A stretch of 64,000 nt of DNA from Kofleriaceae bacterium (lineage in GTDB: Bacteria > Myxococcota_A > Polyangia > Haliangiales > Haliangiaceae), in assembly GCA_024762925.1 (NCBI GenBank), contig JANTGM010000001.1, positions 1 through 64,000 of the forward strand, read 5' to 3'. Under the pieces are notes generated by a model. The model was not told where the DNA came from. It saw nothing but the letters and a program-made list of their open reading frames with translations, and did no database searches. Shown here piece by piece: positions 1 through 45,989 of this stretch. The translations under genes were made by a program, and so were the position numbers. Each line of letters begins with the position of its first letter. Positions within the stretch are counted from its first letter, which is position 1.

Positions 1-65
1 GCAACGGCCAACACAGAGGTAAAATCTAAGAGTTTTACTGACCAAGCTGCTGAAGTGCTGGCACA

Positions 66-662
66 TTAGTCAAGCCACAGGCTATCGCCAGCGCGACCCT
101 GTTCTGCGAGGTAGTCGACAATCGGTGTGAGTTTTGGCTCGGCGACCTCGGGATTGCTGCCGCCAGTTAGATCGCTTTCGATGAGCGCTGCGACATCTTC
201 CCGCAGTGGTCTGCTTGGTAGAACAACCTCAAGGCCGTGGTTGTCAGCTAGCCGTTGCCGGTAGAACGGGGCCTGCATGGTTGGCATCGTGCCAAGCAAT
301 CCCACCTTCGCATGCGAGTCTTTGGCGAGTGCGTTGCCTGCAACATCTGCGATGTGCAGGAGTGGAATGTCTACAGCGTTGCGGGCCGAGTCGGCAAAAC
401 GGTGCACGGTGTTGCACGCGATAACGAGAAGCTCCGCTCCGGCATTCCGTAGCCTCTTGGCCGAAGCGACTAGTGTTTGTCGGACTGCTTCAAAATCCTG
501 CTTGGTCTTGGCGGTGGTGAGCGGATGAAGATCGAGAGAATCGAGAATCACGCGTGCCGAGTGCCAACCGCCAAGCTCCTTGCGGACTTCGCGATTCATG
601 ATGCGGTAGTAGGCTGCCGACGCCTCCCATCCCCACCCTCCAATGAGTCCGATTGTCTTCAT
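66..662 (-). CDS. Aspartate/glutamate racemase family protein, apparently frameshifted at the C-terminus
   Basis: The 198-aa product starts MKTIGLIGGWGWEASAAYY, the N-terminal strand and loop of the Asp/Glu racemase superfamily, which interconverts L- and D-amino acids with two catalytic cysteines. The first Cys is present in IACNT. The ATG at 662 fits the family N-terminus; an in-frame ATG at 725 would add 21 unrelated residues. The family normally ends with a second active-site motif like GCTE. Here the frame ends at GDSLWLD followed by TAA (66-68), while an alternate frame continues TNVPALQQLGQ to a TAA at 35-37. Deletion of about 5 nt between SLWL and TNVP would explain this and would remove the second catalytic Cys. 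It is either a recent pseudogene or a sequence error. The family call is firm; activity as written is doubtful. Confidence 0.8.
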   Translation of the reverse strand: MKTIGLIGGWGWEASAAYYRIMNREVRKELGGWHSARVILDSLDLHPLTTAKTKQDFEAVRQTLVASAKRLRNAGAELLVIACNTVHRFADSARNAVDIPLLHIADVAGNALAKDSHAKVGLLGTMPTMQAPFYRQRLADNHGLEVVLPSRPLREDVAALIESDLTGGSNPEVAEPKLTPIVDYLAEQGRAGDSLWLD

Positions 663-14516: not shown

Positions 14517-14684
14517 ATGGCGAATCACCAACACCACGATCTGGTCCATGGCTCGCTTGGCAGAATAACGCCTGCCGAGTACGCAGAGGATTTTGAGAAT
14601 AACTCGGAGGAACGCGATCCTTCAGCACACTTCTCATACTGCGAACAAGTGCTCGCGGTGGTCGACTCTCTTGCCCAAGAGTGA
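14517..14684 (+). CDS. Possible 55-aa small protein
   Basis: The 488-bp space between the CotH start (14312) and the Cys-rich lipoprotein stop (14801) contains this plus-strand frame, starting MANHQHHDLVHGSLGRITPA and ending VVDSLAQE before TGA. It is acidic at its end and reads like a small soluble protein. No ribosome-binding site stands out and the start could lie upstream at 14460. Apart from this and the terminator at 14752-14774 I see nothing in the interval. Confidence 0.25.
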   Translation: MANHQHHDLVHGSLGRITPAEYAEDFENNSEERDPSAHFSYCEQVLAVVDSLAQE

Positions 14685-14751
14685 CGCCTGGCAAGGCGAC
14701 GCAGGGAGTGGCAGGTTGAACCCCAGATACTTGCCTAGCCGAAACACAAAA

Positions 14752-14774
14752 CAGCCGGGAACGAATCCCGGCTG
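14752..14774 (-). terminator. Rho-independent terminator of the Cys-rich lipoprotein gene
   Basis: A 9-bp perfect GC-rich stem (CAGCCGGGA / TCCCGGCTG) with loop ACGAA lies 26 bp beyond the stop codon at 14801. In the minus-strand transcript it is followed by TTTTGTGTTT, a U-rich tail, which makes a good intrinsic terminator. In the plus direction the tail CTTGTTGT is weaker. Confidence 0.8.
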
Positions 14775-14800
14775 CTTGTTGTGGTGAGTCGTGAGACCGT

Positions 14801-30981: not shown

Positions 30982-31908
30982 TTGCGTCAGCCTCCACTTC
31001 TATTTGCGTCCCAGAGCTATCAACAACTCGCGGACCGCCTCGCCAAGGAGTCGGACCTTGATGTCGGTGGAATTGAGGCCCGGCAATTCCCTGATGGTGA
31101 GAAGTATCGTCGCATCACGACAAGCTGTCGTGGGCGTGACGTGGTTCTTCTTGGCGGTACCATCTCCGATACCGATACCTTAGCGCTGTACGATATTGCG
31201 TGCGCTGCGGTGTATTACGGAGCTCGCCGTCTTTCGATTCTGCTGCCGTTCTTTGGGTACTCAACGATGGAAAGGGCCACACGCCCAGGCGAAGTTGTCA
31301 CAGCAAAAACTCGTGCACGGCTCTTGTCGTCGATTCCAGCAGCGGCCATGGGGAACGAGATTCTCATGCTCGATTTGCATGTCGAGGGCATCACACACTA
31401 CTTCGAGGGCTCTATGCGTCCTCGGCATGTTTCGGCGCGCCCGCTCATTGCCCACATCGCGCGCGGTTTGGTCGGAGACGACTTTGTGCTCGCATGTACC
31501 GACGCCGGCCGAGCAAAGTGGGTTGAGGCACTGGCAAACGAGTTGGATGTGTCCTGCGCCTTTGCCTACAAGCGACGCCTCAATGGAAGCAACACTGAGG
31601 TTGTGGGTGTCAGCGAGCGCGTCGCAGGCAAGAAGGTCGTCATTTACGACGACATGATTCGCACGGGGTCTTCTCTTATCGGTGCGGCTCAGGCGTATAC
31701 CAATGCAGGTGCCACCGAAGTGGCCGCTGTAACGACTCATGGCGTGTTTCCACAAGACGCCCTTCAGAGTCTCCAAGACACAGGCTTGTTCTCCGCCGTT
31801 GCGTGCACCGACTCGCACCCCAGAGCCACCGAACTCGCAGGTGACTTCTTGCAGGTGCACTCGATATCATCGCTACTCACCAACGCCCTGTCGGAGCAGG
31901 GGATGTAA
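30982..31908 (+). CDS. Ribose-phosphate pyrophosphokinase-like protein
   Basis: 308 aa from a TTG start. It follows the PRPP synthetase plan: [55 protein letters not shown] (flexible loop region), [34 protein letters not shown], and the phosphoribosyl-binding loop [19 protein letters not shown]. The usual HAxQIQGFF and DDMIDTAGT motifs are both altered ([18 protein letters not shown]), so it is a divergent member and may use another nucleotide or sugar phosphate. It makes PRPP from ribose 5-phosphate and ATP in the main family. A Nudix gene starts 7 bp downstream. Confidence 0.8.
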
Positions 31909-31915
31909 GGGGATT

Positions 31916-32449
31916 ATGACTAGGGAAAATGCTGAAGGCGAAGTGCTAGGAGAAGGCAAGTGGCTGCGGCTGCGGAAGGAAGGAACGTGGGAATGGGTGC
32001 AGCGTGTGAACACAACCGGTGTTTGCGGCTTGTATGCGTTTACTGACGCCGACGAGGTTGTCCTGGTCGAACAACCCCGGTCACCGCTGGGGAATGCGCG
32101 CGTGTTGGAGATTCCCGCCGGCCTCGTGGGCGACATCGTTGGCCAAGAAGACGAAGCGATTGAGCTTGCCGCTCAGCGCGAGCTCATTGAGGAGACTGGC
32201 TACGAATCTGGCGCATTGCGGCATATCGTTGAGGTGCCGAGTTGCCCTGGAATCACCGAGGAGACCATCACGCTCTACATTGCGCGCGATCTTGAGAAGG
32301 TTGGGCCAGGCGGAGGTGACGAGAGCGAGGACATCGAGGTGCATCTAGTGCCAATGAAAGAATTTGATTCCTTCATTGCCGCACGGATCAAATCCGGAAC
32401 TTGGATTGACCCAAAGGTCTTCGCGGTTCCCTTCTTTCACGGCCTCTGA
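31916..32449 (+). CDS. Nudix hydrolase, ADP-ribose pyrophosphatase (NudF)-like
   Basis: 177 aa. The Nudix box is present as GLVGDIVGQEDEAIELAAQR followed directly by ELIEETGY, a complete Gx5Ex7REUxEExGU with the metal-binding glutamates. VNTTGVCGLYAFTDADEVVLVEQPR upstream and LEIPAGLVG are typical of the ADP-sugar pyrophosphatase subfamily (substrate-binding strand LEIPAG). ADP-ribose would be cut to AMP and ribose 5-phosphate, the substrate of the preceding PRPP synthetase-like enzyme, so the pair makes biochemical sense as a salvage step. ATG at 31916 chosen; the longer frame from 31739 is the shifted PRPP gene. Confidence 0.9.
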   Translation: MTRENAEGEVLGEGKWLRLRKEGTWEWVQRVNTTGVCGLYAFTDADEVVLVEQPRSPLGNARVLEIPAGLVGDIVGQEDEAIELAAQRELIEETGYESGALRHIVEVPSCPGITEETITLYIARDLEKVGPGGGDESEDIEVHLVPMKEFDSFIAARIKSGTWIDPKVFAVPFFHGL

Positions 32450-32676: not shown

Positions 32677-35433
32677 ATGGCGAGCAAGATGAGAGTGAAA
32701 CGTCGCGCGACTCGAAGACGCTCATCAAGCGACACACCAGAGCTAACGTTTGCAGACATCGAGCGGGGACTCGAAGGGCGCGCACCCAACTTTGCCGAAC
32801 TCGTTTGTCGCTATGTTCAGCAACCGGATCCACCCGAAAACCGCCCGGAGGAGCCTTCTCTGCGCGAACCAGCGCCACTTGCAGAAGACGCATGGACGCT
32901 ACAGAAACTGCAAATTGCAGTGTCGCCTGCGAGCATGTGGGGCAAGACACCCGACGAGGAGTGGGCGATTCGCCGCGCCTCTTGGCAGTCGCTCATGGCA
33001 GCGCCCTTCGCCCCACCACGCCTGAAGCTTGCGGAAATGATGGTGCGCCTTTACGAGGCAGACGATGCTTGGTCGCGCTCTGCACTTGTGCACATATTCA
33101 GTCAGGCAAAAATCGGTTGGGGACTTTGGAAGGGCATGAAGGACATCTTCAAGCTCGTTGAGGAAAACTACGATGCCGAGATGTTTGGTGTCATTGCGTG
33201 TCGTCTCGACATCTTCCGCGACTCGCCCAACACACGCGAGATTGGCGGAGCAACCACGTCCTACATGCGTCGCCGCGCCTGGCGATTCTTGCGGCTCTTA
33301 GGGCGCGCGATGCCCGAGCAGTTCCCGTTTTTTGCCAGCCAGGTGCTCAGACACTACCCAGAAGATTCCTACTTCTGGAGCAGCTGGGTTGCTAGCCACA
33401 TCTGGAATCAGAAAAGTCCCTGGGGCGGGCCGCCCGACGACGTGAGTAGGCGCTCCTACAACGACTCCTGGAAAGAGTCAGCAGAGCCACTTTTGCGCTT
33501 AATTGAAGACGCTCAAAACGACGAAGTCTGCAAGTTTGCGATTGGATCGCTAAAGGCTGACTTTCCCGATCGGGTGCGAAGCATCGAGAGTGCATGGCTC
33601 GCTCGTATCGCAGGCAAGGGGCTCTCGAATGTCGATGGCTTCATTGTTGAAATACTCGAAGGGTCACCAGAATTTCACCAAAGTACGCTCGCAAAGCTCG
33701 GTCTACACGAGATGGCGGTTGGCTTGCTTGCGAGCCAAAACGACAAAGCGCTTCGCTACGCTATCGACTACTGCAACGCGCACGCACCATCGATCGACCT
33801 CGACACACTGATCGACCTCGCAGAGCGCGGAGGGAAGGCACTCACAACTTTCGTACTTGCCCGCTTGGAGAAGGCATCGCCCAGCGACTTGGGACTTGCC
33901 CGCCTCGTGCGCATGCTCGACATTTCAGCGACCGAGAAGCTCGGCACGGCAAAACTCAAGAAGGGGTACAGCGCCGCTGATATCGACGTGGAAACATATG
34001 TTGCTCTTGCCACCGCAGGCCAACAGGCGTTTCTTGCGCAGTTCTACAAGGACGCCAAGCTGCAGGTGCCCACAAGTCATCTCCGCAGTCTTGTCGAGTC
34101 CGATGATGTGTCCAATCGCGATCGGCGCAATACGCTTCGCGAACTAGCCAAACGCAAGGCGAGTGAGATTGGCATCCAGTGGATTCAGGAGGGCCTCTTC
34201 GATCCGCGCTTTAGCGATGCGATCAGTCTATGGCTCAGAGGCGGCATGCTAAAGGGCGACGAGCTCGACGTGGATTGGCTCAAGGGCTTGGTTGCAAGGC
34301 CCAGTTGGCGTGGCCTTGTCTTGCAGCTTCTTGGCAATACCGATCTGGTAGCGCCGCATCGAATCGGATCGCAGTGGCTGTTGAAAGCGGCGAGGCACTC
34401 CGATTCGAGTGTTGCGGACTTTGCTCACAACTACTTGTTGCACCATTTCTCGCCCATGGATTTTGCCCTTGAGCAAAACTCCGATGATGTCTCTGTTGGC
34501 GTCGACCTAGTCTTTGCGCTGTTGGGTGATGAGCACGAAGCGGCTGTGCGCCGGTTTGCAGCAAGCTACCTTCTCTTGCATCACCCCGTGCTCGGTCCGA
34601 AGCTTGAGGCGAGCCGGTCGCTTGGCATCAAGCCGAAGCTCAAGAGCAAACACTACAGCCTTGAGCGACTGCGCAATCTCATCTTTGATGCGCGACTCGA
34701 CGTTCGCACCTTTGCGACAACCGTTGCACGGACCGAACTAATTGGTTGGAAGCAATCAAGCCTGGCTTACGATATGGCATCGAGCCTCTTTCGGGAGACT
34801 CGGGTTGTTGGCGCTGAGGCTGTGCTCGGCATTGGCGAGGAGAAAAGCGAGAAAGCGCTTGCTCCGCCACTAACGTGGCTCGATTCGGAACGAGCATTTG
34901 CCATGGCCGAGAGCCCAACCAAGGCGACTCGCGAGATTGCGCTCACACTAATTCGTCGCCACTATGGGGCGATTGGAAGCGCGGAGAGACTCGCGTGGCT
35001 CATGGACAGCCCCGACCGAGAAGTGCGGCTCTTTGCCGTGCGTCTTCTCTGGGAAAAACACCGGCCACTCGCAGGGCCCGCTGACGAAGGGCAACAGCGA
35101 TTCGACTCCGACGCGACACTTCGCGAGTTCGTGCGCACGGTGCTCTTTGGGTTGCCACCAGGACGAATGGAAAGGCGCGATGGGGACTCGGGAGCCGAGA
35201 GACCGCTTCCTGCAAGTGTCGCCAAGCGGCACGTCGTCGATGTGGTTCGGGACATGGGGGTCGAGAGCATTGGTTTCGCCAAGATCATCGCACCAGTATT
35301 AGAAGAATTCTTTGCTTCTCGCGCAAAGGGCGAGTGGCACAGCTGCGTGGCGGCGCTTGCGCGTATGCGCGCCGCTCACCCAAGTTTAGAAACATCCCTC
35401 CCCAGTTCTTCCCACGCCCAGGTGGCGGAGTAG
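32677..35433 (+). CDS. HEAT/ARM-repeat protein, retron-associated (918 aa)
   Basis: A soluble alpha-helical protein of 918 aa. The N-terminus is basic and Ser/Arg rich (KMRVKRRATRRRSSS), then helices with many Trp (EEWAIRRASWQSLM, IGWGLWKGMKDIF) up to about 300, then degenerate HEAT/ARM-type helical pairs, clearest at about 560-840 (LLGDEHEAAVRRFAASYLLL; LMDSPDREVRLFAVRLLWEK). No enzymatic motif is visible. It stands 4 bp before the 2172-aa HEAT protein and begins a same-strand run ending in a retron RT. Retrons I know as type XIII carry an ARM-repeat protein, which supports a sensing or scaffold role here. The helical-repeat call is solid; the retron link is inferred from gene order. Confidence 0.75.
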   Translation: MASKMRVKRRATRRRSSSDTPELTFADIERGLEGRAPNFAELVCRYVQQPDPPENRPEEPSLREPAPLAEDAWTLQKLQIAVSPASMWGKTPDEEWAIRRASWQSLMAAPFAPPRLKLAEMMVRLYEADDAWSRSALVHIFSQAKIGWGLWKGMKDIFKLVEENYDAEMFGVIACRLDIFRDSPNTREIGGATTSYMRRRAWRFLRLLGRAMPEQFPFFASQVLRHYPEDSYFWSSWVASHIWNQKSPWGGPPDDVSRRSYNDSWKESAEPLLRLIEDAQNDEVCKFAIGSLKADFPDRVRSIESAWLARIAGKGLSNVDGFIVEILEGSPEFHQSTLAKLGLHEMAVGLLASQNDKALRYAIDYCNAHAPSIDLDTLIDLAERGGKALTTFVLARLEKASPSDLGLARLVRMLDISATEKLGTAKLKKGYSAADIDVETYVALATAGQQAFLAQFYKDAKLQVPTSHLRSLVESDDVSNRDRRNTLRELAKRKASEIGIQWIQEGLFDPRFSDAISLWLRGGMLKGDELDVDWLKGLVARPSWRGLVLQLLGNTDLVAPHRIGSQWLLKAARHSDSSVADFAHNYLLHHFSPMDFALEQNSDDVSVGVDLVFALLGDEHEAAVRRFAASYLLLHHPVLGPKLEASRSLGIKPKLKSKHYSLERLRNLIFDARLDVRTFATTVARTELIGWKQSSLAYDMASSLFRETRVVGAEAVLGIGEEKSEKALAPPLTWLDSERAFAMAESPTKATREIALTLIRRHYGAIGSAERLAWLMDSPDREVRLFAVRLLWEKHRPLAGPADEGQQRFDSDATLREFVRTVLFGLPPGRMERRDGDSGAERPLPASVAKRHVVDVVRDMGVESIGFAKIIAPVLEEFFASRAKGEWHSCVAALARMRAAHPSLETSLPSSSHAQVAE

Positions 35434-35437
35434 CATC

Positions 35438-38400
35438 ATGGCCGCCAATTTTCTACCTCACCTTGAACGCCTCGAAGCTGTTGCAATCTCGCGAGCTGGC
35501 TTGATTGCCATTGGCGGTCGCCGCGACAGTGATGCACCAACCTCCGTTCACGTTGCCACGCTGCCAAAAGTGGACGCTCCTGTGTCTCTGGAAACCGGGG
35601 CACCGATTCTTGCACTGTGCTTCGTGGGGGAAGTCTTGTGTGCGGGCGATAGCACCGGCAAAGTGCACCTTTGGGATGGAGGCAATGGGTGGAAGTCACT
35701 CGGCGCAAAAGAACATCACAAGGGGGCTGTGCGGGCGCTAGTTGCCGTTGGAGATCAACTCGGTAGTGTTGGTGACGACGGCGTGTTTCGGCTGGCGAAG
35801 ATCGGAGCAAAGGGGCTCGGCAAGAGCAGCGAGCGTTCGCTCTCCAAGCGAAGCCTCAGAACCTTGACCTTCGATGAAGGTCTTGGCGCATTGGCTACGG
35901 GCGGCGATGACGGCATCGTGCGATCGTTTGATACCAAGGCCGATAGCGAAGTTCGCGAGATGGACATGGGAGCAGCGGTCACCGCGCTCGCCTTTCTTGG
36001 GGATGGCAGGATTGCATCGGGCTGTGCGGATGGTAGTGTGCGCTTTGCGTTCCTCGAAGGTGCCGCCGAGCCAGAAGACCGGTCCAAAGACACAGCACAT
36101 GATGGTGCGATTCGCGCCCTAATCTACTCGGCCCAACTGCACGATGCTGCCAAGCGACCACTGCCGAGACGGCTTCTGTCCGTCTCCGAAGATGGCGACA
36201 TCAAGGCCTGGCAGGTTGATAGCAAGCGCAAGCCACCTACCATCAAAGTCTCGAAGAAGGCGCTTACGGGCGCAGTTCTGATTCCGGGCAACCCAAGGGC
36301 GAAAGGCGACAAGCGTGGAGGAACGCTCGCAGTTGTCGATCGCAACCGAGTTCTTTCCCTGCTCACCGTGGACGAAGAGGGCAAAGTTTCCAATGCAATT
36401 GGCAGGGTGGAATCCCGATTCGAAGAGCTCGCCGGCCTCATCAAGTCCAGAAAGGATGAGGTTCGCATTGGCGCTTGCAATGAGCTTGGAAAACTCACCG
36501 AAGACGAAGCACGGAAGAAACTCGATTCGGCGCTCCTTGGCGACAACAAGCCTGGCGTGCGGAGAGCAGCAGCAGCAGCGATCGCATCAGGCGATCGACG
36601 TCTGAGTCGGCCCGCACTTCGAGAGGCACTTAGCGATTCCGACCCCAAGGTTCGCGATGCTTCGCTGCGAGCACTCGAGAAGATCGAGCGAGACGCGCCG
36701 GTTGCCGCAGCGCGCGCAGCTCTCCAATCCAGCAAGAGTGACATCCGCATTGCTGGTGTCAGTCGATTGCCCGCTCTTCGCGAGCAATCCTCGCTTGTGC
36801 CTGCGCTTATTGCTGCAACACTCTCGGACGATAGCGAGAAGGTTCGGGCTGCTGCACTCGACGCCCTGTACAAACTTGAGGCCAACGCACCGCTAGACGC
36901 TGCTCGCACTGCGTTGGGCCGCGGTCCCGCCGATGTGCGCCGGGATGTCTTGATTCGAATTGGACAAGGACGCTTGGCTCTTGTGCCCGAGGGCGCTGAA
37001 ATCGTCGAGGGTGCCTTGGACGACGAAGACGAATCTGTGCGTAGCACGGCATTTCTTACATCGATCGCTGCGCGCGCTTCACTCATGGCCAAGGTTCGCG
37101 CGGTCGATGTACACACCAAGAAGGCCGTTGCCGAAATGGAACGTCGTGGGCTCTTCGCGGATGCAAGTGATGCCACAGACCTTGTCGAGTCGGACTTGCG
37201 CCCGCTCTTCGCCGCGATGGCATGCCGTTTCGCAGACACAGCGCTGCGAGCTGCACGCCTGCTTGCAATGCTTGGTGACCCTCGTGCCACTGGCGTATTG
37301 CTGCAACTGAGCCGAGAACCGGAGGCCAGCACTCGTCGCTATGTCGTCGAAGCGCTGATGTCTGCAGCGATGGCTATGCCATCCGATGGCCGCGTCACTG
37401 CACGGCTTCGCTGGCTTGTTGACGATGTTGACGAGACCGTGCGCCAAGCGTCGTTTGACGTCCTGCAGATGCTCGGCGAGGTTGGCGGCGCGAGCGGCGA
37501 GATCGATGTCGCAGCACTTGCTCTTCGAGCTGGCAACGCGGACATTCGCGTGCGCGCTCTGCAGATTCTTGTGAAGTTTGGAGGCTCAGGGCAGTACGCA
37601 AAGATCAAAGAGTCAGCCGAGCGCGCGGATGTCCTGCTTGGCGATGCTCTCGACGATGAGCACGACAAGGTTCGCGGAGAAGCATTTCGCACGTTGTGGA
37701 CGTGGCACAACAAAGACCCAAGGCGCGTGCTTGAGCGGGCTGCTCTTTGCCGGCAACCCGAAGTGCGCCGTCGCGTGGTCAAAGAACTTCCTCACCAAAA
37801 GCCTGAGAAAAACTCTTGGGCCGACGAACTGCTGTTGTCGCTGATTGGCGACCACAATGCCGTTGTCGGAATTGATGCCTACGAGGCTGCAGTCAAGCCA
37901 AAGAATGGTGAGAAGCGGGTTGATGTGCATCAGCAGGCACTGAACTCACCTTGCGCGGTCGTTCGTGTACGAGGCTTGCGCGGGGTTCCAAAGAAGGGTG
38001 CTGATGAGCTCGTTCCTCGCATTGTCGAGCTGGTTCGCGACAAGGAGGCCACGGTGCACATTGCTGCGATCGAGGCTCTCGACAATCTGGCCCCAGCCAA
38101 CGTGGAAGGGTTTGTGGCAGCCTTCGCGAGCATTTTTTACGAGCTACGTGTGCGCGCAATGGAACTGTGTGGCCGTCGCCGAGACGAGCGATGCATCGCA
38201 CCAGCCCAAGAGTTTCTTGCAATTCTCGAGACCGACATCAATCGCCCAAGTGACGAGCTTCGTCACCGGGCGGCAGCCGCCATCGCCGATGTTGGCGCAC
38301 GATCGCTACTGAGCTACTACCAAAGCCTTCTTGAAGATGGGCACCCTGCTGTGCGCGAAATGGCTTCGCGCGGAATGGCGACGGGGGCGGCGCCGGGCGA

Positions 38401-41400
38401 TGAGTCGTTGCTCTCATCCGTCCTTGGCCACGACGATCTGCCTGTTCGCTCGTGGATTGCTGAAGGCCTTGCAAGGCTTGGGGATGCGCGCGCACTTCCG
38501 GTTCTCGCTGGCACGCTTGCACACGATCACCTGCCGATCCGCCGCGGTGCAATCATGGGCTTTGTCGCCCTTGGGCCCGATGGCGTGGGTGGGATTCTCA
38601 AGGGGCTAGACGATAGCGAACGAGTCATACAAGACCTGGTCTTCGCTGTGATTGTTGCGCGTGACCTTGCTCTCAGCCGAGCCGAAGAGGGGCCAGACTT
38701 GCTTCTTTCCGCACTCTCCGCTCAGCACCCCGAGATTCGCTACGCAGCGGCGCAGCTTTTGGAAGTTCGAGGAACGGAGGCACATACCAAGGCGGCAGCA
38801 GGGCTTGTTGGACCGCGGCTTCGCGAGAAGGCGAGCGATATGAAGGATTGGCCGAGCGCCGATGAGCAGGCCAGTCGTTTGGCTGTGCTCGTCGAAGCGC
38901 TGGCAAGTGACCACCCTCTGCATCGCTATGCGGCTACGCAGGTTCTTGCGTTGCGTCCACAGCCGATGGCGTTTTGGCGAGAGTCAAAGCTGCTTCTCGG
39001 CCCCTCAAGCAGGAGCCGCCCGCGCATTCCATTCACAAATTGGGATAGCGAAGAGCGAGCACCGCGCAAGCGGAGCTGGATTCACGAGCTTTTTCGAAAG
39101 GCCTCATCGGGGAGCCCAACGGCAAGCACCGAAACCGAAAGGTTGCTCGAAGTCTTGGGAGCTGTGCCTTCGAGCTCGGCAGAGACCACCTTTGAGGAAT
39201 CGAAACTGGTCTTTGGTACCTATGCAGGGCTTGTGCGCCAAGCGCCGGTCCATGGGGAGTCCGATGAGAGTCACAGGGTTCGTCGCGATTCGGTGCAGCG
39301 CCTTGCGGTGATTGCAGCTAATCCCGCTGTTGGGCGCGAAGCTGTTATGCCTGTTTTGCAGAGCGCACTTAGCGACCCTCACCATATGGTGAGACGCTCG
39401 GCTGTCGCAGCTGTGCGCAGCTTATATCCAGATGGGGCTCTTGAACCACTTCGATTTGAGCTCTCATCAACAGCGAGTGACGTGGGCCGGGGCGGAGTCA
39501 ATGAAGTTGTCTTGCGGGCTAGCGAATCTGCCGAAGCGCTCGCGCTTGCCAAGGAGACCATCAATGCACCCGTCGCCGAGGTACGCCGATACGGTCTCTC
39601 GCAACTGCCACAGCTTTTCGAGACAGGGAGTCTCGAGCCATGGCTTCTGGCCTTGGAGAGTCGGTACTCCGACATTCGAATCAACGTTGTCGATCGGCTT
39701 GTTGACTCTACAGATGAGCGGGTCCTGGTGGCACTGGGTCGGGCGATGGAGAGCGAGCACGAAGACTTGCGATTGCGGGCTGCCTCGGCCTTGGCTGCAC
39801 GCGGTGACATTCGCACGGCTGATGTGCTCACGAGCTTGCTCTTCTCGGAAGACTGGGAGGAGGGTGCAACAGACGCCCTTATCGAGCTGGCGCACGCACG
39901 ACCAAATCCCGAGGCGAAGCGAGTGGCAGCGCTGGCAATCGTGAACCGTTTGGAGAATGACCCCGACGAAACTGCTGATCGCTACGAGTTGTTCTCAGCC
40001 TTGGCTCGAATTGGCGATGCGAGTGCCGCTGAGTTTTTAACCAAGACCATTCTCGATGAGGAGAGCAAAGACGACTCGACAAACGCCCTTCGGATCCTGG
40101 TTCAGTGTCTAACGCAAAGTGACGCTCCAACCACCCGCGATAGCAACGGCGATACGATTCCGACCTTTGACGTGCACGTGGCGCTTCCTGTGGCTCAACA
40201 ACTCAGTGTCGCGAAGGACGCTGCAATCCGCCAGTCGACGGCCGAGCAGCTTCTTCGGTATCTACCTGGTGCTCCTACAGAAGAACTCCTGGATATGCTT
40301 CTGCAGGATCGAGTTGCCGATGTTCGAGTTGCGGCTTGCATGGCATTGTCGTATCGAGCCGAGAATGAGCCCGATGCCAGTGTGGGCGCGCTCAGCTCCG
40401 CACTCAAGGAAGGTCGCCGTGAATTGGTGCTTCCCGCAGCGGAGGGGCTGGCAGCGCGCCAGCAGCCCGAAGCATTCCAACCTCTGCTCCTGGTCTTCAA
40501 GGCCGGCGAACAGCACGAACGTGCCCGAGCTGTCATGGCGATGGGGGCACTCGGAGATAGTCGCGTCTTAGAAGAACTCTTACCGCTCATCGAAGGAGCT
40601 AACGAGCTGGAGCCTGAGGATGCGGAGCTTGTGCCGCCAATCGTCGAATCCCTCGGTCGAATGCTGCCACGGCTCAAGGACACCGTAGCTACCAAGGTGC
40701 GTGGCCTGGTCGAGAATCTGGCTCGCGAGGGTGGGCATGATCTTCGCATTCGTGCGCTTCGAGGATTGCGACATGCTGGCGATGATCGGAGCCTCGCATT
40801 TATTGAAGGTGTTGCAGCTGATTCGCTTGAAGGTAGCGATATTCGGGTGTCGGCGATCAACGAATTGGGTGTGCTCGCAAGACCATCATCGGAAACCGTG
40901 CTTGCGGATATCGTGCGAGAGGGCGGCTACAACACTGGGTACTCAGCATTGGAAGCTCTCAAGAAGATCTTTCCTGAGGACAAGACTCGGACCCAGCTCA
41001 TGGCGCTTCGAAGTGCGGATTCCGATCTTAGTGCGCCAGCGGCAAGCTTCTTGTCGTGGTTTGGAGAAGTCGAGACCTTGATGGACCAGCTAAGTTCGGT
41101 GACCGATCAGGGCATTCGAGCAAGACTTCGCCAGGGGCTCATTCGACGAGAACTTGTCGACACCGCGGCCCTTGAATCGAGTCTCTCCGAAATGCTGGCA
41201 TCCGAGGTTGCTCTCGACCGCGCCGATGCTTCTTGGATTGTTGGAGCCGCCAAGGTCAAGAGCTTGGCCGGCGGGCTGTCCAAGGCGCTTTCACGCGCCG
41301 CCAAGGAGTATTCGAAGGCGTCGACAATGACACAGGAAGAGCAGTGCCTCGAAGCGTGGACTGCGGGCTTGTGGGCATCTCTGCGCACATCTGCGGATGC

Positions 41401-41956
41401 TGACAAGGCCGCTCGTGCTGCGGTGAAAGATGTATCGCTTCCTGCGAATCTGCGCGGCATCGCGACGAGGGTGCTGGCATCGGGCAAGGGGGAACAAAAA
41501 CTCTTCGAGAGTTTACTGACCGATCGCGATGCTGGCGTTCGAGCGACAGCGGCATCAGCCCTGGCTGAGCTGTTTCCCACGAAGGTGGAGGCGGCTATTA
41601 CAAAGACCGTTGTGGCCGATGGCGCCGCGCTTCGCCCGGTTATCAAAGCTGCTCTCGAGGGGGGCTCGGATTTGCTTGCCGACAGCAACACCCGTCGTCT
41701 TGCTACGAGCACCATGATGGGGCAGCGTCGCGTAGAGGACTTCACGAAGGTTGCACAGACGTCGAAAGACAAACCAGCGCGCTTGGCAGCAATAGCCGCC
41801 TTGGGGCGCCTGGGAGGAGGGCAAGCAGAGGAAGCTCTTGCCGGCCTTGTGAAAGAGGAAGCCGAGGCTGATGAAGTCAAAGCCGCAAGCTTCCGCGCAC
41901 TGCGGAGATTGCAGAGGCGTGCAGCCAAACTAGCTAGCTATGAGGAGAGCCGATGA
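35438..41956 (+). CDS. Giant WD40-HEAT repeat protein, retron-associated (2172 aa)
   Basis: The first ~290 residues contain WD40-like beta-propeller repeats, with phrases such as VLCAGDSTGKVHLWDGG, LGSVGDDGVFRLAKIG, ALATGGDDGIVRSFDTK and RIASGCADGSVRFAF. From about residue 320 to the end stretches an uninterrupted solenoid of HEAT (PBS-lyase-like) repeats, e.g. LLGDNKPGVRRAAAAAIASG and SDSDPKVRDASLRALEKIE. Repeats are about 30-40 residues, many ending in Arg/Lys-Ala-Ala-Leu helices. No catalytic site. Such a propeller plus long solenoid is a protein- or nucleic-acid-binding scaffold. It starts 4 bp after the first HEAT gene and overlaps the next start by ATGA. The length is remarkable for a defence-type component. 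Confidence 0.85.
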   Translation: MAANFLPHLERLEAVAISRAGLIAIGGRRDSDAPTSVHVATLPKVDAPVSLETGAPILALCFVGEVLCAGDSTGKVHLWDGGNGWKSLGAKEHHKGAVRALVAVGDQLGSVGDDGVFRLAKIGAKGLGKSSERSLSKRSLRTLTFDEGLGALATGGDDGIVRSFDTKADSEVREMDMGAAVTALAFLGDGRIASGCADGSVRFAFLEGAAEPEDRSKDTAHDGAIRALIYSAQLHDAAKRPLPRRLLSVSEDGDIKAWQVDSKRKPPTIKVSKKALTGAVLIPGNPRAKGDKRGGTLAVVDRNRVLSLLTVDEEGKVSNAIGRVESRFEELAGLIKSRKDEVRIGACNELGKLTEDEARKKLDSALLGDNKPGVRRAAAAAIASGDRRLSRPALREALSDSDPKVRDASLRALEKIERDAPVAAARAALQSSKSDIRIAGVSRLPALREQSSLVPALIAATLSDDSEKVRAAALDALYKLEANAPLDAARTALGRGPADVRRDVLIRIGQGRLALVPEGAEIVEGALDDEDESVRSTAFLTSIAARASLMAKVRAVDVHTKKAVAEMERRGLFADASDATDLVESDLRPLFAAMACRFADTALRAARLLAMLGDPRATGVLLQLSREPEASTRRYVVEALMSAAMAMPSDGRVTARLRWLVDDVDETVRQASFDVLQMLGEVGGASGEIDVAALALRAGNADIRVRALQILVKFGGSGQYAKIKESAERADVLLGDALDDEHDKVRGEAFRTLWTWHNKDPRRVLERAALCRQPEVRRRVVKELPHQKPEKNSWADELLLSLIGDHNAVVGIDAYEAAVKPKNGEKRVDVHQQALNSPCAVVRVRGLRGVPKKGADELVPRIVELVRDKEATVHIAAIEALDNLAPANVEGFVAAFASIFYELRVRAMELCGRRRDERCIAPAQEFLAILETDINRPSDELRHRAAAAIADVGARSLLSYYQSLLEDGHPAVREMASRGMATGAAPGDESLLSSVLGHDDLPVRSWIAEGLARLGDARALPVLAGTLAHDHLPIRRGAIMGFVALGPDGVGGILKGLDDSERVIQDLVFAVIVARDLALSRAEEGPDLLLSALSAQHPEIRYAAAQLLEVRGTEAHTKAAAGLVGPRLREKASDMKDWPSADEQASRLAVLVEALASDHPLHRYAATQVLALRPQPMAFWRESKLLLGPSSRSRPRIPFTNWDSEERAPRKRSWIHELFRKASSGSPTASTETERLLEVLGAVPSSSAETTFEESKLVFGTYAGLVRQAPVHGESDESHRVRRDSVQRLAVIAANPAVGREAVMPVLQSALSDPHHMVRRSAVAAVRSLYPDGALEPLRFELSSTASDVGRGGVNEVVLRASESAEALALAKETINAPVAEVRRYGLSQLPQLFETGSLEPWLLALESRYSDIRINVVDRLVDSTDERVLVALGRAMESEHEDLRLRAASALAARGDIRTADVLTSLLFSEDWEEGATDALIELAHARPNPEAKRVAALAIVNRLENDPDETADRYELFSALARIGDASAAEFLTKTILDEESKDDSTNALRILVQCLTQSDAPTTRDSNGDTIPTFDVHVALPVAQQLSVAKDAAIRQSTAEQLLRYLPGAPTEELLDMLLQDRVADVRVAACMALSYRAENEPDASVGALSSALKEGRRELVLPAAEGLAARQQPEAFQPLLLVFKAGEQHERARAVMAMGALGDSRVLEELLPLIEGANELEPEDAELVPPIVESLGRMLPRLKDTVATKVRGLVENLAREGGHDLRIRALRGLRHAGDDRSLAFIEGVAADSLEGSDIRVSAINELGVLARPSSETVLADIVREGGYNTGYSALEALKKIFPEDKTRTQLMALRSADSDLSAPAASFLSWFGEVETLMDQLSSVTDQGIRARLRQGLIRRELVDTAALESSLSEMLASEVALDRADASWIVGAAKVKSLAGGLSKALSRAAKEYSKASTMTQEEQCLEAWTAGLWASLRTSADADKAARAAVKDVSLPANLRGIATRVLASGKGEQKLFESLLTDRDAGVRATAASALAELFPTKVEAAITKTVVADGAALRPVIKAALEGGSDLLADSNTRRLATSTMMGQRRVEDFTKVAQTSKDKPARLAAIAALGRLGGGQAEEALAGLVKEEAEADEVKAASFRALRRLQRRAAKLASYEESR

Positions 41957-43776
41957 GCGACTCGTTATCGCGACCTGAGTTTGCGCCGGTCACCGTGCGC
42001 TACTCAAAAGCCGCCCGTCCCGAGAAGAGCGGAGATGCGTTGAGCCTTACGCTCTTCACCGATGGCCTTCGCGCTGGGGCTAAGGCAGACCTGGAACTGA
42101 AGGAGCCAGCCGTTGTCCGTGATGCAATGCTCACGATGGCCGACATCCTGGCGAGTGATCTTCGCTTCAAAGCCACCGATCGTTCGGACTACCTGGCTTA
42201 CTTGCTCAAGCAGGGGCAGCGCGCCACAAAAGAACTCTGGGATGCTCAACAGAGTTTCTTGCAGCGGAGGTACGCCGAGGAAGCTGCTGAAGAGGCGCCA
42301 CTCGATCCGCTCCTCACGGTGTCCGATGACGAGATTGGCCTTGAAGTCTTCTCTGCAGATGAATCTGCCTACGCTCGTCTCACGCTTCGCTCTGGCGAAG
42401 CCTACAAAGCAAAGAAGACTGCTCCTGGCACAACACACATCGACTTGATCTCAGCTGTGGGCGGTATTACCGAGCTGCGATCGTATCGATCCGCAAAACT
42501 GTGCTTTGAGCCATCTGCGTCCGATGGTGACACTCGTGACATCCAGGTGCCGTATCGATGGGTTCGCGCGCTAGGGCAGATGCAGGCAGCTTCCACATTG
42601 CCAGCTACCGAGTTTGAAGTCGCACCAATCGACCTCTATAACTTGCTCTTCACACTGCGCACACAACGTGCCAAGAAGTCTCCCCGAGCTTTGCGCTACG
42701 AACTTGTGCCGGGGCAGGCACCCAGAATTGTTCTGGAGCCATGGGAACTCGTTATTGAGGGAAGCGGCGCTCCGTACGAGGGAAACCGACCCGCAGTAGT
42801 GAGAACTTGGGGTCGTCGTCGGCTGAGCTTACTTGCGCGAATCTTGCCGCACTGCAAGTCGGTTCGAATTCGTCTAGCAGGAGCAGGGATGCCAGCGTTC
42901 TACATCTTTGATCTTGGCGTTGCTACGTTGACCTTGGCTCTCTCTGGCTGGACCGATAGTGGCTGGGCGGGAATCGCGACGTTTGATCTTTTTGGTGGTG
43001 ATGCCGATGCCAAGCTGGCTAAGAAAATCGAAGCATCGCTAAGCAAGGAGCCAAAGACGCTCAAGACGTTAACTGCCGAGCTCAAATCCGACCAGACCAC
43101 GGTGCGAAACGCCCTCTTGTCGCGAATGCAGACCGGCGATATCGTTCATGAACTTGGAGATGGTCGATTCCACCATCGCCCGCTCTTCGATTCGCCTATC
43201 GATGTCGAAAACGTGCGCTATCGCGATGAGAATGAGGAGGCCGCTCATCGGCTTCTTGCGGTGAATGGCCAAGTGCGGATCACAACGGTGCATGACCTTG
43301 GCGGTGAAGGCGTTCGTATCGAGGGTGAAATCGAGGACAAACAAGCACACCGAACATTTCTTACATCTTTCACGATTGATCGCGAAGGACGAACCGTGGA
43401 TGCAAGCTGCACGAGCCCGCAATTTCGCAGGGCAGGGCTGCGCGAAGGGCCAACCGTGCCCATGATCGCATTGCGGCTGCAATACGCCCGAGAGCGTGCA
43501 GAACTTGAGCGGGCGCGCGGTACAGAGGCTGGGCGCAAACTCATTCGAGCGGAAACGCGTATGCTGATTCGTCGTGACAAGGACGAACTCACACTCATGC
43601 GCGTATCGCTAAACGACAAGAAGGTCATTGTTCGGTGGGGCCCAGAGCCCGACAACATGCGCATGACACAGCAAGTCTTTAGTAGTTCGGACGAAGCTCG
43701 CGACGACTATTTTGGACGTCTATCGAGCTGCGCAGAGCGTGGCTTCATCGACGCGAGTGCAGCGGAGGCAATGTAG
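41953..43776 (+). CDS. Winged-helix / degenerate SWIM / WGR-like protein, retron-associated
   Basis: 607 aa. An N-terminal mixed region of unknown fold is followed by a winged-helix-like segment at about 355-412 (LKTLTAELKSDQTTVRNALL ... GDGRFHHRPLF). Residues about 440-515 follow the SWIM domain outline (VRIEGEIEDKQ ... TFLTSFTIDREGRTVDASC, then PQFRRAGLREGP, then MIALRLQYARE), but the CxC...CxH zinc ligands are mostly gone: CTS at 486-488 and GPTVP at 499-503. The C-terminus (about 545-600) is WGR-like: VIVRWGPEP, QQVFSSSDEARDDYFGRL, RGFIDA. Winged-helix plus SWIM proteins are the known companion of ARM proteins in type XIII retrons as I recall them. Coupled (ATGA) to the giant HEAT gene; the msr-msd RNA starts 132 bp after its stop. 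Confidence 0.78.
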   Translation: MSDSLSRPEFAPVTVRYSKAARPEKSGDALSLTLFTDGLRAGAKADLELKEPAVVRDAMLTMADILASDLRFKATDRSDYLAYLLKQGQRATKELWDAQQSFLQRRYAEEAAEEAPLDPLLTVSDDEIGLEVFSADESAYARLTLRSGEAYKAKKTAPGTTHIDLISAVGGITELRSYRSAKLCFEPSASDGDTRDIQVPYRWVRALGQMQAASTLPATEFEVAPIDLYNLLFTLRTQRAKKSPRALRYELVPGQAPRIVLEPWELVIEGSGAPYEGNRPAVVRTWGRRRLSLLARILPHCKSVRIRLAGAGMPAFYIFDLGVATLTLALSGWTDSGWAGIATFDLFGGDADAKLAKKIEASLSKEPKTLKTLTAELKSDQTTVRNALLSRMQTGDIVHELGDGRFHHRPLFDSPIDVENVRYRDENEEAAHRLLAVNGQVRITTVHDLGGEGVRIEGEIEDKQAHRTFLTSFTIDREGRTVDASCTSPQFRRAGLREGPTVPMIALRLQYARERAELERARGTEAGRKLIRAETRMLIRRDKDELTLMRVSLNDKKVIVRWGPEPDNMRMTQQVFSSSDEARDDYFGRLSSCAERGFIDASAAEAM

Positions 43777-43839
43777 TCGTGAGGCAATGTGATCGTGAGG
43801 CGAGGCAATGTGATCGTGAGGCAAGGCAATGTGATCTTG
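43767..43839. repeat. Short tandem repeat at the stop codon of the winged-helix gene
   Basis: Three copies of a 21-bp unit beginning GGCAATGTGATCGTGAGG start at 43783, 43804 and 43825 (the last truncated). A shorter 16-bp copy at 43767 contains the TAG stop of the preceding gene. The repeat lies between that gene and the retron RNA. No protein or structured RNA is suggested. Confidence 0.75.
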
Positions 43840-43908
43840 TTGTGCCGATTGATGCCGAGAAACATGGACAAAGAGGAGGCAGCCACGTAGCGTCTTTTTA
43901 AGATTTCA

Positions 43909-44148
43909 GGAGAAGGGACTGGACAGAGTTAGCCATAGAGCGGCGTAGCGCCGTTTAGGTATCGTCTTCGGACATTCGCCACAAGGTAAGCTATTCATGG
44001 TGTATCTCCCCCTAGGGGGTACCTGCACCGCGCATAGCTGGACCAACCTCACAACCGCGGTTTATGCGCAGTGCAGGTACCCCCTAGGGGGGATACACCG
44101 GTGAGCCTACCGTGTCCCGTGTAGGATAGTAGCTTCAGTCCCTTCTCC
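43909..44148 (+). ncRNA. Retron msr-msd non-coding RNA
   Basis: The ends pair as the retron a1/a2 inverted repeat: GGAGAAGGGACTG at 43909-43921 and CAGTCCCTTCTCC at 44136-44148, 13 bp perfect. GTTAGCC follows a1; its G at 43932 fits the priming guanosine of the conserved UAGC-type msr sequence. The msr then has hairpins CGGCG-TAG-CGCCG (43941-43953) and GTC-TTCG-GAC (43964-43973, UUCG tetraloop). The msd is a long hairpin (43999-44099). The RT gene starts 30 bp after a2. In retrons the RT copies the msd from the 2'-OH of the branch G to give msDNA, an RNA-DNA hybrid; the product here should be a little over 100 nt, exact ends unknown. Confidence 0.9.
43999..44099 (+). repeat. msd inverted repeat (36-bp hairpin)
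   Basis: Left arm 43999-44036 and right arm 44063-44099 pair along 36 bp, broken only by a one-base bulge (T44007) and one C-A mismatch near the tip; the loop is 26 nt (44037-44062). Each arm contains the 12-bp palindrome CCCCCTAGGGGG, so the single-stranded DNA product could also fold locally. This is the template of the msDNA stem. Confidence 0.92.
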
Positions 44149-44178
44149 AACTTTTCAAGACGCGCGGCCGCAGATCGT

Positions 44179-45543
44179 ATGACAGGCAGCGCAAACGACA
44201 AATCAGACAACGTACTTGGACGGGTAGCACCTGGCGAACCTGTCCAGTGGGCTGCAATCGCCGAAGCCGGTGGCATCTATTCGTGGGTGAACTCCGAGCT
44301 CGATAGGCTTGGCCTCATTGACGATGTCGATACCACGACGCTCTCTGCAAAAGAGCGCAAGGCGTATCGCGCACGACGAGATGAGGAGCGGCGAGTTCGG
44401 CGACTTCTCAAGAAAGCTGCTTGGGCTAGCTACAAGACCAGCCACATTGTGCATGTGGGGCGAGGCGTCTTCTATCACGACACCGTTGACGTCGACAGGT
44501 TCGACATCGAAGATCCAACAGCACGCTTAGAAGCGAACAGTACACCGCCACTCCGCGACGCAAACAAACTAGCCGAAGCGCTGGGACTCAGCATTTCGAA
44601 GCTTCGGTGGTTGTCCTTCAATCGCGAGGTTGATACGGGCTCACACTACCATTTCTGGACCGTGCCAAAACGCGATGGTGGCCGTCGGTTGATCAGTGCC
44701 CCAAAGCCGGATCTCAAGGCAGCACAAACTTGGATCGCTAGGAATATTACTGAGCACCTGCCGATTCACGGTGCTGCTCATGGCTTTGTTCCAGGGCGAA
44801 GTACCGTGACCAACGCAGCGGTTCACGCAGGCGCGACCATCGTTTTCAAGTTCGACATTCGAGACTTCTATCCCTCGGTAACCGTCAATCGAGTTAAGGG
44901 GCTGCTGCGCAAGGCGGGCTACGGCGAGCAGGTTGCAACCCTAATGGCGCTCCTGTGTACGGAGTTTCCCCGCGAGGAACTCATGTTGCGTGGCGAGCGA
45001 TACTACGTAGCAACTGGGCCACGTGGATTGCCGCAAGGTGCTCCCACAAGTCCTTCCATCACCAACGCATTGGCCATGCGTCTCGATTGCCGTCTGGCGG
45101 GTTTGGCCAAGTCGCTAAAGCTTCGCTACAGCCGGTATGCAGACGATTTGACATTCAGCTGGCATGGCGGAGCCACGGATGCGCCCGTGAAGCGAATCAA
45201 AACGTCGGTGGCCAAGATTGTCGCAAACGAGGGATTCGAGATTAAGGAATCCAAGACCCGCATCTTGCGTCACGGCCGTCGCCAACGCGTAACTGGGTTG
45301 GTCGTCAACAAGACTGAGAGCGGAGAGGCTGCTCGCGTACCGAGGTTCAAAATGCGTGAGTTGCGAGTCGCCCTCCACAAGCTCGAGCGCGGAGAGCCAA
45401 CTGTAGAGAGTATTGAGCAGCTTCGCGGATGGGCGGCGTACGTTTACATGACTGACAAGAGCCGCGGTGGAAAAATGCTGGAGCGGTTGGCAAAGGTTGC
45501 CCCAGCCACATCAGAGGCAAGTCCAAAAGGAGAAGAGCGATGA
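44179..45543 (+). CDS. Retron reverse transcriptase
   Basis: 454 aa. Residues 1-110 are an extension of the kind seen in myxobacterial retron RTs (KERKAYRARRDEERRVRRLL, AWASYKTSHIVHVGRGVFYHD). RT motifs: VPKRDGGRRLISAPKPDL, HGFVPGRSTVTNAAVHAGA (with the retron-specific NAxxH at 212-216), catalytic FKFDIRDFYPSV, GLPQGAPTSPSITNALA, the YADD box (320-323) in RYSRYADDLTFS, ESKTRI, and RVTGLVVN with the VTG motif (371-373) that recognises the msr. All catalytic Asp residues are present. It starts 30 bp after the msr-msd RNA, and its TGA overlaps the WGR gene (ATGA). It makes msDNA and, by analogy, controls the accessory proteins. Confidence 0.96.
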   Translation: MTGSANDKSDNVLGRVAPGEPVQWAAIAEAGGIYSWVNSELDRLGLIDDVDTTTLSAKERKAYRARRDEERRVRRLLKKAAWASYKTSHIVHVGRGVFYHDTVDVDRFDIEDPTARLEANSTPPLRDANKLAEALGLSISKLRWLSFNREVDTGSHYHFWTVPKRDGGRRLISAPKPDLKAAQTWIARNITEHLPIHGAAHGFVPGRSTVTNAAVHAGATIVFKFDIRDFYPSVTVNRVKGLLRKAGYGEQVATLMALLCTEFPREELMLRGERYYVATGPRGLPQGAPTSPSITNALAMRLDCRLAGLAKSLKLRYSRYADDLTFSWHGGATDAPVKRIKTSVAKIVANEGFEIKESKTRILRHGRRQRVTGLVVNKTESGEAARVPRFKMRELRVALHKLERGEPTVESIEQLRGWAAYVYMTDKSRGGKMLERLAKVAPATSEASPKGEER

Positions 45544-45989
45544 GTGATTGGACCGTGGAACTAGAATTCAATGACGGCTCCTCGAAGAAGTTCTGGCGGG
45601 CTCGCACCGATGGCAGTGACTTCATCGTTAACTATGGCCGCATTGGCACCGATGGGCAGAGCAAGACCAAGGGCATGGGCAGTGCCGATAAGGCGAACGC
45701 AGAGCTTGAGAAGGTTGCCAACCAAAAGCGCAAGAAGGGCTACGACGACGTTGAAGGCAGCGCGACGCCGGACGCTGGACCAACCGTGAACGCTGTCCCC
45801 GAGGTAAAGAACAAGAAGGGCAAGTACAAAGTTAAGCGGGCGGGCCAGACCATCGTGGTTGAGATCGAAACCGATGGAGCCAGCATCGAAACCGAGATCG
45901 AAGAGACGCACGCCAGTCCTGAAGCTGCGGCAGCGAGCTACGACAGGATTGTCGAGTCCCTTCTCGCCTCGGGATACAAGAAAGCGTAG
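45540..45989 (+). CDS. Small double-WGR-domain protein, retron-associated
   Basis: 149 aa. Residues 3-70 are a clear WGR domain: VELEFNDGSSKKFWRARTDG, NYGRIGTDGQSKTK (Y in place of W), then ADKANAELEKVANQKRKKGY. Residues about 92-149 look like a second, degenerate WGR copy without the WGR signature (KYKVKRAGQTIVVEIETDGA, SPEAAAASYDRIVESLLASGY). WGR domains bind nucleic acid ends next to PARP catalytic domains and occur in MolR-type proteins. The gene overlaps the RT stop by 4 bp, so it is translated with the RT; a role in binding msDNA or target nucleic acid is inferred. The WGR-like tail of the 607-aa protein makes three WGR-type modules in the locus. Confidence 0.82.
   Translation: MSDWTVELEFNDGSSKKFWRARTDGSDFIVNYGRIGTDGQSKTKGMGSADKANAELEKVANQKRKKGYDDVEGSATPDAGPTVNAVPEVKNKKGKYKVKRAGQTIVVEIETDGASIETEIEETHASPEAAAASYDRIVESLLASGYKKA

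What the first reader, a model, noticed from the sequence alone, without database searches (positions are those of the whole stretch)
32677..45989. Retron locus with two HEAT solenoids, a winged-helix/degenerate-SWIM protein, msr-msd, RT and a WGR protein
Five same-strand genes and one structured RNA form a tightly packed block: HEAT (918 aa), WD40-HEAT (2172 aa), winged-helix/SWIM/WGR-like (607 aa), msr-msd RNA, RT, double-WGR protein. Gene gaps are 4 bp or ATGA overlaps on both sides of the RNA. The ARM/HEAT + winged-helix-SWIM + RT pairing fits what I recall as type XIII retrons. A second, giant WD40-HEAT protein and a WGR protein coupled to the RT are additions I do not recall from that type. 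An anti-phage role, with msDNA as sensor and HEAT proteins as scaffold or effector, is inferred.
Basis: partly seen in the sequence, partly recalled or inferred. Interest (0 to 1): 0.9.

Follow-up and report, generated by a model that had tools for sequence, protein, structure and literature searches.

The report
Type XIII retron with clamp-like protein
This myxobacterial locus is a real retron (an enzyme that turns a small RNA into DNA, often for virus defence) of an already catalogued type, but one of its proteins is predicted to be shaped like the sliding ring that holds DNA polymerases on DNA, and in many relatives the retron's RNA genes lie far from the enzyme, often in several copies.

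Summary
Observation confirmed: five tightly coupled same-strand genes and one structured RNA (43909-44148). It is a type XIII retron. PADLOC's XIII models match RT, both HEAT proteins (the 2172-aa one end to end) and the SWIM protein, so the giant is not an addition to the type. HEAT1, giant, SWIM and RT stay together in 22 of 22 relatives with enough contig, on one RT clade (100/100). The small WGR gene is clade-specific; elsewhere WGR is fused to the HEAT protein. The SWIM zinc ligands are lost in the window's clade.

Beyond the finding: (1) residues 44-335 of the SWIM protein are predicted to be a complete PCNA-like sliding clamp (Z 16.7, 2.5 A over 211 residues), with weak, register-matching profile support. 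(2) In 12 of 15 relatives whose RT operon lacks the adjacent RNA, covarying msr-msd RNAs lie elsewhere in the genome, one to six copies, some at syntenic loci in two species; 0 of 13 genomes with the adjacent RNA have extras. This fits, and may explain, the RT-less msr-msd repeats of Nannocystis Ne160. (3) A DNA ligase-WGR gene sits beside some related retrons. Antiphage function is inferred, untested.

The parts
32677..35433 (+). HEAT1, 918-aa alpha-solenoid protein (PADLOC HEAT-ARM_XIII PDLC02921; also homologous to the HEAT part of the WGR_XIII fusion protein)
   Evidence: 784 bits, residues 22-906 of the protein; 104 bits to WGR_XIII positions 237-597
35438..41956 (+). Giant 2172-aa WD40 (N-terminal) + HEAT protein (PADLOC HEAT-ARM_XIII PDLC02919)
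   Evidence: 1241 bits, end to end
41953..43776 (+). 607-aa 'SWIM_XIII' protein: predicted PCNA-like clamp (44-335), winged helix (~353-408), zinc-less SWIM (~485-510), WGR-like C-terminus (534-595)
43909..43921 (+). a1 arm of the retron RNA (GGAGAAGGGACTG)
   Evidence: covaries with a2
43909..44148 (+). msr-msd RNA; GTTAGCC at 43928-43934 (predicted branch G 43932 by homology to Ec86, inferred); msd stem 43981-43992/44104-44115 and long hairpin 43998-44040/44058-44100
44136..44148 (+). a2 arm (CAGTCCCTTCTCC)
44179..45543 (+). Retron reverse transcriptase, 454 aa, RT_XIII; NAxxH, YADD and VTG motifs present
   Evidence: (best PDB match Ec86 RT, E 9e-40)
45540..45989 (+). 149-aa WGR protein; WGR at residues 1-68, second half uncertain

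Best explanation
A type XIII retron of a 'long-operon' sub-type inherited widely in Myxococcota. SHOWN by sequence: a retron RT with its motifs; an adjacent RNA with the a1/a2 stem, TTAGC branch context and msd hairpin of retrons under strong structural selection; and obligate co-inheritance of HEAT1, the giant WD40-HEAT protein and the SWIM protein with the RT. PREDICTED by structure: the SWIM protein is built on a PCNA-like sliding clamp followed by winged helix, SWIM (zinc lost here) and WGR-like modules. INFERRED: the RT primes on the branch G and copies the msd into msDNA. The msDNA/RT particle is held in a complex with the clamp-like/WGR DNA-end-binding proteins and with the two solenoids, which act as scaffold and output. 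Replication intermediates, nicks or ends made by an invading phage, or tampering with the msDNA, release or re-target the complex and stop the cell or the phage. The DNA-end/clamp parts would be the sensor arm. No catalytic effector was recognised, so the killing step is unknown.
For: PADLOC type XIII matches for RT, HEAT1, giant and SWIM, weak for WGR. RNA structure and covariation. RT motifs and Ec86 RT as best solved match. HEAT1-giant-SWIM-RT order in 22/22 testable loci and a 33-row RT clade supported 100/100. PCNA fold: Foldseek E 3.7e-8, VIA Z 16.7, rmsd 2.5 A, 211 residues over PCNA 1..245. Profile alignment in the same register and including the PCNA C-terminal motif, score 25.2 against shuffled mean 14.9 and max 22.5; repeated with a set that excludes the window's long-operon relatives, 24.9. 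WGR = PARP2-type DNA-end domain. DNA ligase-WGR beside related retrons.
Against: No experiment. The clamp model rests on 5 sequences (mean pLDDT 70.8), and hhalign probability to PCNA is only 1.6%; the window-clade-only profile gave no significant score (20.0; 1/30 shuffles reached it). Pfam found no PCNA match. No PIP-box is conserved in the partner proteins. WGR is a common domain in this genome (11 matches), so its presence is weak evidence. Vertical inheritance and lack of a recognisable toxin would also fit a non-defence role.
Confidence: 0.6

Rival explanations
1. Two unrelated neighbours: a HEAT/SWIM gene cluster beside an independent retron RT + RNA.
For: A 402-bp spacer separates the two halves in the window, and HEAT proteins are common partners of many systems.
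Against: In many relatives SWIM and RT overlap or nearly abut (L124-L134, L139-L143); HEAT1 is never seen without RT_XIII where testable (22/22); PADLOC's XIII definition groups them.
Confidence: 0.02
2. The complex is a housekeeping DNA-repair or genome-surveillance device (clamp, WGR, BRCT and ligase partners around an msDNA), not primarily an antiphage system.
For: Clamp-like fold; WGR; BRCT in the giant of the L139 branch; ATP-dependent DNA ligase-WGR beside eight relatives in the window's family and three loci of another branch; msr-msd genes kept at syntenic loci; myxobacterial retrons described as vertically inherited (PMC6868368).
Against: Patchy distribution: 66 of 379 Myxococcota genomes have RT_XIII at E<=1e-90. 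Tested retrons of other types act in phage defence.
Confidence: 0.25
3. The clamp-like match is an artefact of tandem beta-beta-beta-beta-alpha (WGR-like) modules that resemble a clamp after circular permutation.
For: The WGR model itself weakly hits DnaN/beta clamps; the SWIM protein has WGR-like modules at its C-terminus.
Against: The match covers a whole PCNA chain end to end at rmsd 2.5 A and Z 16.7, with hundreds of PCNA chains and no WGR proteins among the best rows; profile alignment gives the same register.
Confidence: 0.15
4. The distant msr-msd copies in relatives are retrotransposed or decaying debris rather than working templates.
For: Published interpretation of the Nannocystis exedens repeats as possible retrotransposition (Lampson & Rice 1997; Lampson 2002, both cited in PMC6868368).
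Against: Copies are full length with private, mutually complementary a1/a2 arms that debris of msDNA would lack; 95.5% of pair cells standard, 575 double-change cells, 0/500 shuffles; four of the five G281 copies have syntenic counterparts in G362, and in two of these pairs the stem sequences differ widely while staying complementary; they occur where the operon has no adjacent RNA (12/15 against 0/13, Fisher p 1.5e-5).
Confidence: 0.15

Closest known systems
Retron type XIII (PADLOC XIII models; classification of Mestre et al. 2020, recalled, paper not held)
   Same: RT_XIII, SWIM_XIII and two HEAT-ARM_XIII models match strongly over nearly the whole protein; msr-msd upstream of the RT.
   Different: WGR is a separate 149-aa protein instead of the N-terminus of a ~1000-aa WGR-HEAT protein; the SWIM zinc ligands are lost. 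The clamp-like fold and the distant RNA copies in relatives are not in the PADLOC model names, and no held paper describes them.
Retron-Nex1 (Ne160) of Nannocystis exedens (PMC6868368 citing Lampson & Rice 1997)
   Same: Several msr-msd repeats without an RT within a kilobase, as in the long-operon relatives here.
   Different: The window's own genome has a single, adjacent RNA.
PCNA / 9-1-1 sliding clamps
   Same: Whole-chain fold match of residues 44-335.
   Different: About 10% identity, no Pfam match, fused to winged helix + SWIM + WGR-like modules; ring formation unknown.
PARP-type WGR domains and bacterial WGR proteins (PDB 2ra8)
   Same: WGR1 matches 2ra8 at 1.0 A and PARP2 WGR bound to DNA ends.
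   Different: No PARP catalytic domain in the locus.

Membership tests
Retron | Retron RT with NAxxH, YxDD and VTG motifs | tested here: met
   best solved relative Ec86 RT E 9e-40
Retron | Adjacent msr-msd RNA with a1/a2 pairing, TTAGC branch context and msd hairpin | tested here: met
   branch residue itself inferred
Retron | Makes RT-DNA (msDNA) | not testable with these tools
   needs RT-DNA sequencing
Retron type XIII | RT in the XIII clade | tested here: met
   PADLOC RT_XIII 485 bits, next RT model 303; tree
Retron type XIII | HEAT/ARM partner protein(s) | tested here: met
   PDLC02921 784 bits; PDLC02919 1241 bits
Retron type XIII | SWIM_XIII partner | tested here: met
   476 bits over residues 13-514
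Retron type XIII | WGR_XIII partner | tested here: inconclusive
   WGR protein only 16.5 bits; HEAT1 matches the HEAT part at 104 bits: the fusion appears as two genes here
SWIM zinc finger | CxC...CxH zinc ligands | tested here: not met
   CTS...PTVP in window; intact in relatives such as L045-L053 and L124-L134 (except L133)
PCNA-like sliding clamp (fold) | Two-domain clamp fold | tested here: met
   Z 16.7, rmsd 2.5 A, 211 aligned, on a predicted model
PCNA-like sliding clamp (family) | Significant sequence-family match | tested here: inconclusive
   no Pfam PCNA match; hhalign P 0.03, Prob 1.6%, same register, above 30/30 shuffles for the full set
PCNA-like sliding clamp (family) | Ring around DNA, processivity or recruitment function | not testable with these tools
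   no multimer prediction or assay
Antiphage defence system | Protects against phage | not testable with these tools
   inferred from retrons in general

The most novel reading that the evidence does not exclude
Type XIII retrons are clamp-based DNA-surveillance machines: the 'SWIM' protein is a PCNA-like clamp fused to DNA-binding modules, working with WGR, BRCT and ligase partners. In a large branch of them one RT operon serves a dispersed, vertically inherited family of separate msr-msd genes with different hairpins, a multi-template retron, which would explain the RT-less msr-msd repeats seen in Nannocystis since 1997.
Probability: 0.5. Interest if true: 0.85.

Novelty: new variant of a known kind. 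Interest (0 to 1): 0.66.

Why it matters
No held paper describes a mechanism for type XIII retrons, and no effector domain was recognised in this operon. A PCNA-like clamp gives the first structural clue to what such a system touches: DNA at replication or repair sites. Distant, multi-copy msr-msd genes would break the rule that a retron RT works on the RNA beside it, would offer natural multi-template retrons, and would give a testable answer to an old puzzle about repeats in Nannocystis.

Tried and rejected
Rfam at gathering threshold found no RNA in the window: the family is absent or too divergent, so a covariance model was built here. Consensus promoter and terminator scans were no better than shuffles. 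PIP-boxes: one match each in the HEAT1 of window and L136, at different places, not conserved. HHalign to PCNA with the long-operon-clade profile alone was not significant (20.0, 1/30 shuffles). Solved-structure sequence search with the SWIM profile gave nothing (E 0.32). No literature was held for type XIII biology, and none joining retrons with clamps; the main classification paper (NAR 2020) is not held. First idea that relatives with overlapping SWIM-RT genes have lost the RNA: rejected for 12 of 15, as copies lie elsewhere. G175, G250 and G369 gave no RNA hit; their RNAs may be too divergent for the model or absent. tRNA-associated integration of distant copies: no tRNA genes near them. 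Whether the distant copies are strictly intergenic was not systematically tested.

Full report
WHAT IS THERE. Five + strand genes run from 32677 to 45989 with a 4-bp gap and two ATGA overlaps, and one spacer of 402 bp between the third and fourth genes. Pfam gives HEAT repeats (barely in the first gene, strongly in the second), WD40 at the start of the second, RVT_1 in the fourth and WGR in the fifth. PADLOC gives type XIII models for four of the five with strong scores: HEAT-ARM_XIII PDLC02921 784 bits, HEAT-ARM_XIII PDLC02919 1241 bits end to end, SWIM_XIII 476 bits, RT_XIII 485 bits against 303 for the next RT model; the small WGR protein reaches WGR_XIII only weakly. The RT carries NAxxH, YADD and VTG, and its best solved relative is the Ec86 retron RT. 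So the locus is a type XIII retron, and the 2172-aa protein is already part of the catalogued type.

THE RNA. In the spacer lies an RNA with complementary ends a1 (43909-43921) and a2 (44136-44148), GTTAGCC just inside a1, a conserved small stem, and a long msd hairpin. Its folding energy is 12 standard deviations below shuffles. Sixteen homologous RNAs from relatives were aligned. On them 97.3% of pair cells are standard pairs, 228 cells show changes on both sides, and no shuffle reaches any of the five measures. The long hairpin stem is almost free in sequence but always complementary, while its loop (GCTGGACCAACC...) and its base (GGTAGGCT/AGCCTACC) hardly vary. Rfam has no match.

DO THE GENES BELONG TOGETHER. 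RT_XIII and HEAT1 models were searched in 379 Myxococcota genomes and about 70 loci were read. Wherever HEAT1 lies on a contig long enough, the order HEAT1-giant-SWIM-RT follows: 22 of 22 cases by my count; the remaining strong HEAT1 hits lie too close to a contig end (contig lengths). On a maximum-likelihood RT tree these loci form one clade of 33 rows (100/100). Other RT_XIII branches have SWIM-RT with one HEAT protein whose N-terminus is a WGR domain (L037: WGR_XIII 927 bits). Window HEAT1 is homologous to the HEAT part of that fusion, so the 149-aa WGR protein is best read as the split-off WGR, not as a foreign addition. The separate WGR gene is found in 13 of the 17 loci of the window's sub-clade and in no other long-operon locus.

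SWIM LIGANDS. The CxC...CxH ligands are intact in nearly all relatives but lost in the same way (CTS...PTVP) in nine loci including the window, and independently in L161. On the SWIM tree the nine form one clade with modest support (81/94).

A CLAMP FOLD. The AlphaFold model of the SWIM protein, from five sequences, has mean pLDDT 70.8 with mostly 70-90 across the relevant part. Foldseek's leading matches are PCNA (E 3.7e-8). VIA-align gives Z 16.7, 2.5 A over 211 residues, model 45..335 on PCNA 1..245, and also the Rad9-Rad1-Hus1 clamp. A profile without the window's long-operon relatives gave 24.9, the long-operon profile alone 20.0 (not significant). I take the clamp-like fold as likely (about 0.8), ring formation as untested. 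It is followed by a winged helix, the degenerate SWIM and a WGR-like module.

OTHER DNA-BREAK PARTS. All eight loci of the neighbouring sub-clade (L045-L049, L051-L053), and L036, L038 and L039 on another branch, carry an ATP-dependent DNA ligase nearby; the one annotated in detail has a C-terminal WGR. Ligases with this OB domain occur in only 11 of 189 sampled genomes. The window genome has one at the end of another contig. In the L139 branch the giant has a BRCT domain where others have WD40.

DISTANT RNA GENES. In many long-operon relatives SWIM and RT overlap or nearly abut and leave no room for the RNA. Whole-genome searches with the covariance model found the RNAs elsewhere: two copies after the RT (L133), one before and two after (L138), three before HEAT1 (L130), or on other contigs or far away: six in G362, five in G281, two each in G170, G207 and G400, and one 100 kb away on the operon's own contig in G217. 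No system gene lies in the stretches fetched around them (about 6 kb each side where the contig allows). As a set they fold as well as the adjacent ones: 95.5% standard pairs, 575 double-change cells, 0/500 shuffles; every a1/a2 pair counted covaries (that alignment was fitted to the model, which favours the structure somewhat). Four of the five G281 copies have syntenic counterparts in G362. In two of those pairs the hairpin stems differ widely but remain complementary, while a1/a2 and flanks stay alike. Of 15 genomes whose operon lacks the adjacent RNA, 12 have distant copies; of 13 with it, none has extras (Fisher p 1.5e-5; genomes are related, so the p-value is optimistic). Of 33 genomes with the RNA among 379, 32 have RT_XIII and the other has the operon cut at a contig end. 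The RT tree suggests the adjacent RNA is ancestral, since outgroup branches also have it between SWIM and RT. A review notes that Retron-Nex1 (Ne160) of Nannocystis has several msr-msd repeats with no RT within a kilobase (PMC6868368). My data offer an explanation for that kind of arrangement, but I could not test Nannocystis itself.

MECHANISM. Most likely the RT makes msDNA from the adjacent RNA and the RNP sits in a large complex with the clamp-like/WGR DNA-end proteins and the two solenoids. A DNA-replication or DNA-break cue from phage infection would be the trigger. The order of events, trigger and output are inferred. A repair or surveillance role without phage is the main rival.

VERDICT. 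The locus is a sound, well-conserved member of a known retron type with a clade-specific gene set. The clamp-like fold and the distant, multi-copy RNA genes in relatives are what lift it above ordinary.

Noticed in passing
L211-L215 (G281), L218, L219, L221, L224-L226 (G362), L204-L210, L216, L217, L220, L222, L223: Full-length msr-msd RNA genes far from any RT operon gene, one to six per genome, several at syntenic loci in two species with re-drawn but complementary hairpin stems.
   Followed up: partly
L138:12680-12945, 14430-14698, 14727-14987; L133:15388-15647, 15690-15955; L130:16262-17381 (-): Tandem msr-msd copies around a single type XIII operon: before and after the RT, or upstream of HEAT1.
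   Followed up: partly
window 41953-43776, residues 44-335: PCNA-like sliding-clamp fold predicted in the 'SWIM' protein of a type XIII retron.
   Followed up: partly
L045:4997-6496, L049:2585-4102 and similar; L036, L038, L039: ATP-dependent DNA ligase next to type XIII retrons of two branches (C-terminal WGR where checked).
   Followed up: partly
L139:7074-13760 (-): Giant HEAT protein of a related retron with a BRCT domain in place of WD40.
   Followed up: no
window 43777-43836: Three near-identical ~20-nt direct repeats (GAGGC..GGCAATGTGATC) between the SWIM stop codon and the RNA; not seen in the corresponding spacer of L002.
   Followed up: no
window 30982-32449: PRPP-synthetase-like gene followed by a NUDIX-like ORF directly upstream of the operon; probably unrelated metabolism genes.
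   Followed up: no
window genome G000 (11 matches on 10 contigs): Many WGR-domain matches in this genome, so a lone WGR gene is weak evidence of partnership.
   Followed up: no
L045-L053 versus L133/L138: RT tree and SWIM tree disagree on where the zinc-keeping loci sit, hinting at gene exchange inside the operon or weak resolution.
   Followed up: no
L161 (G100): Second, independent loss of the SWIM zinc ligands in another branch.
   Followed up: no
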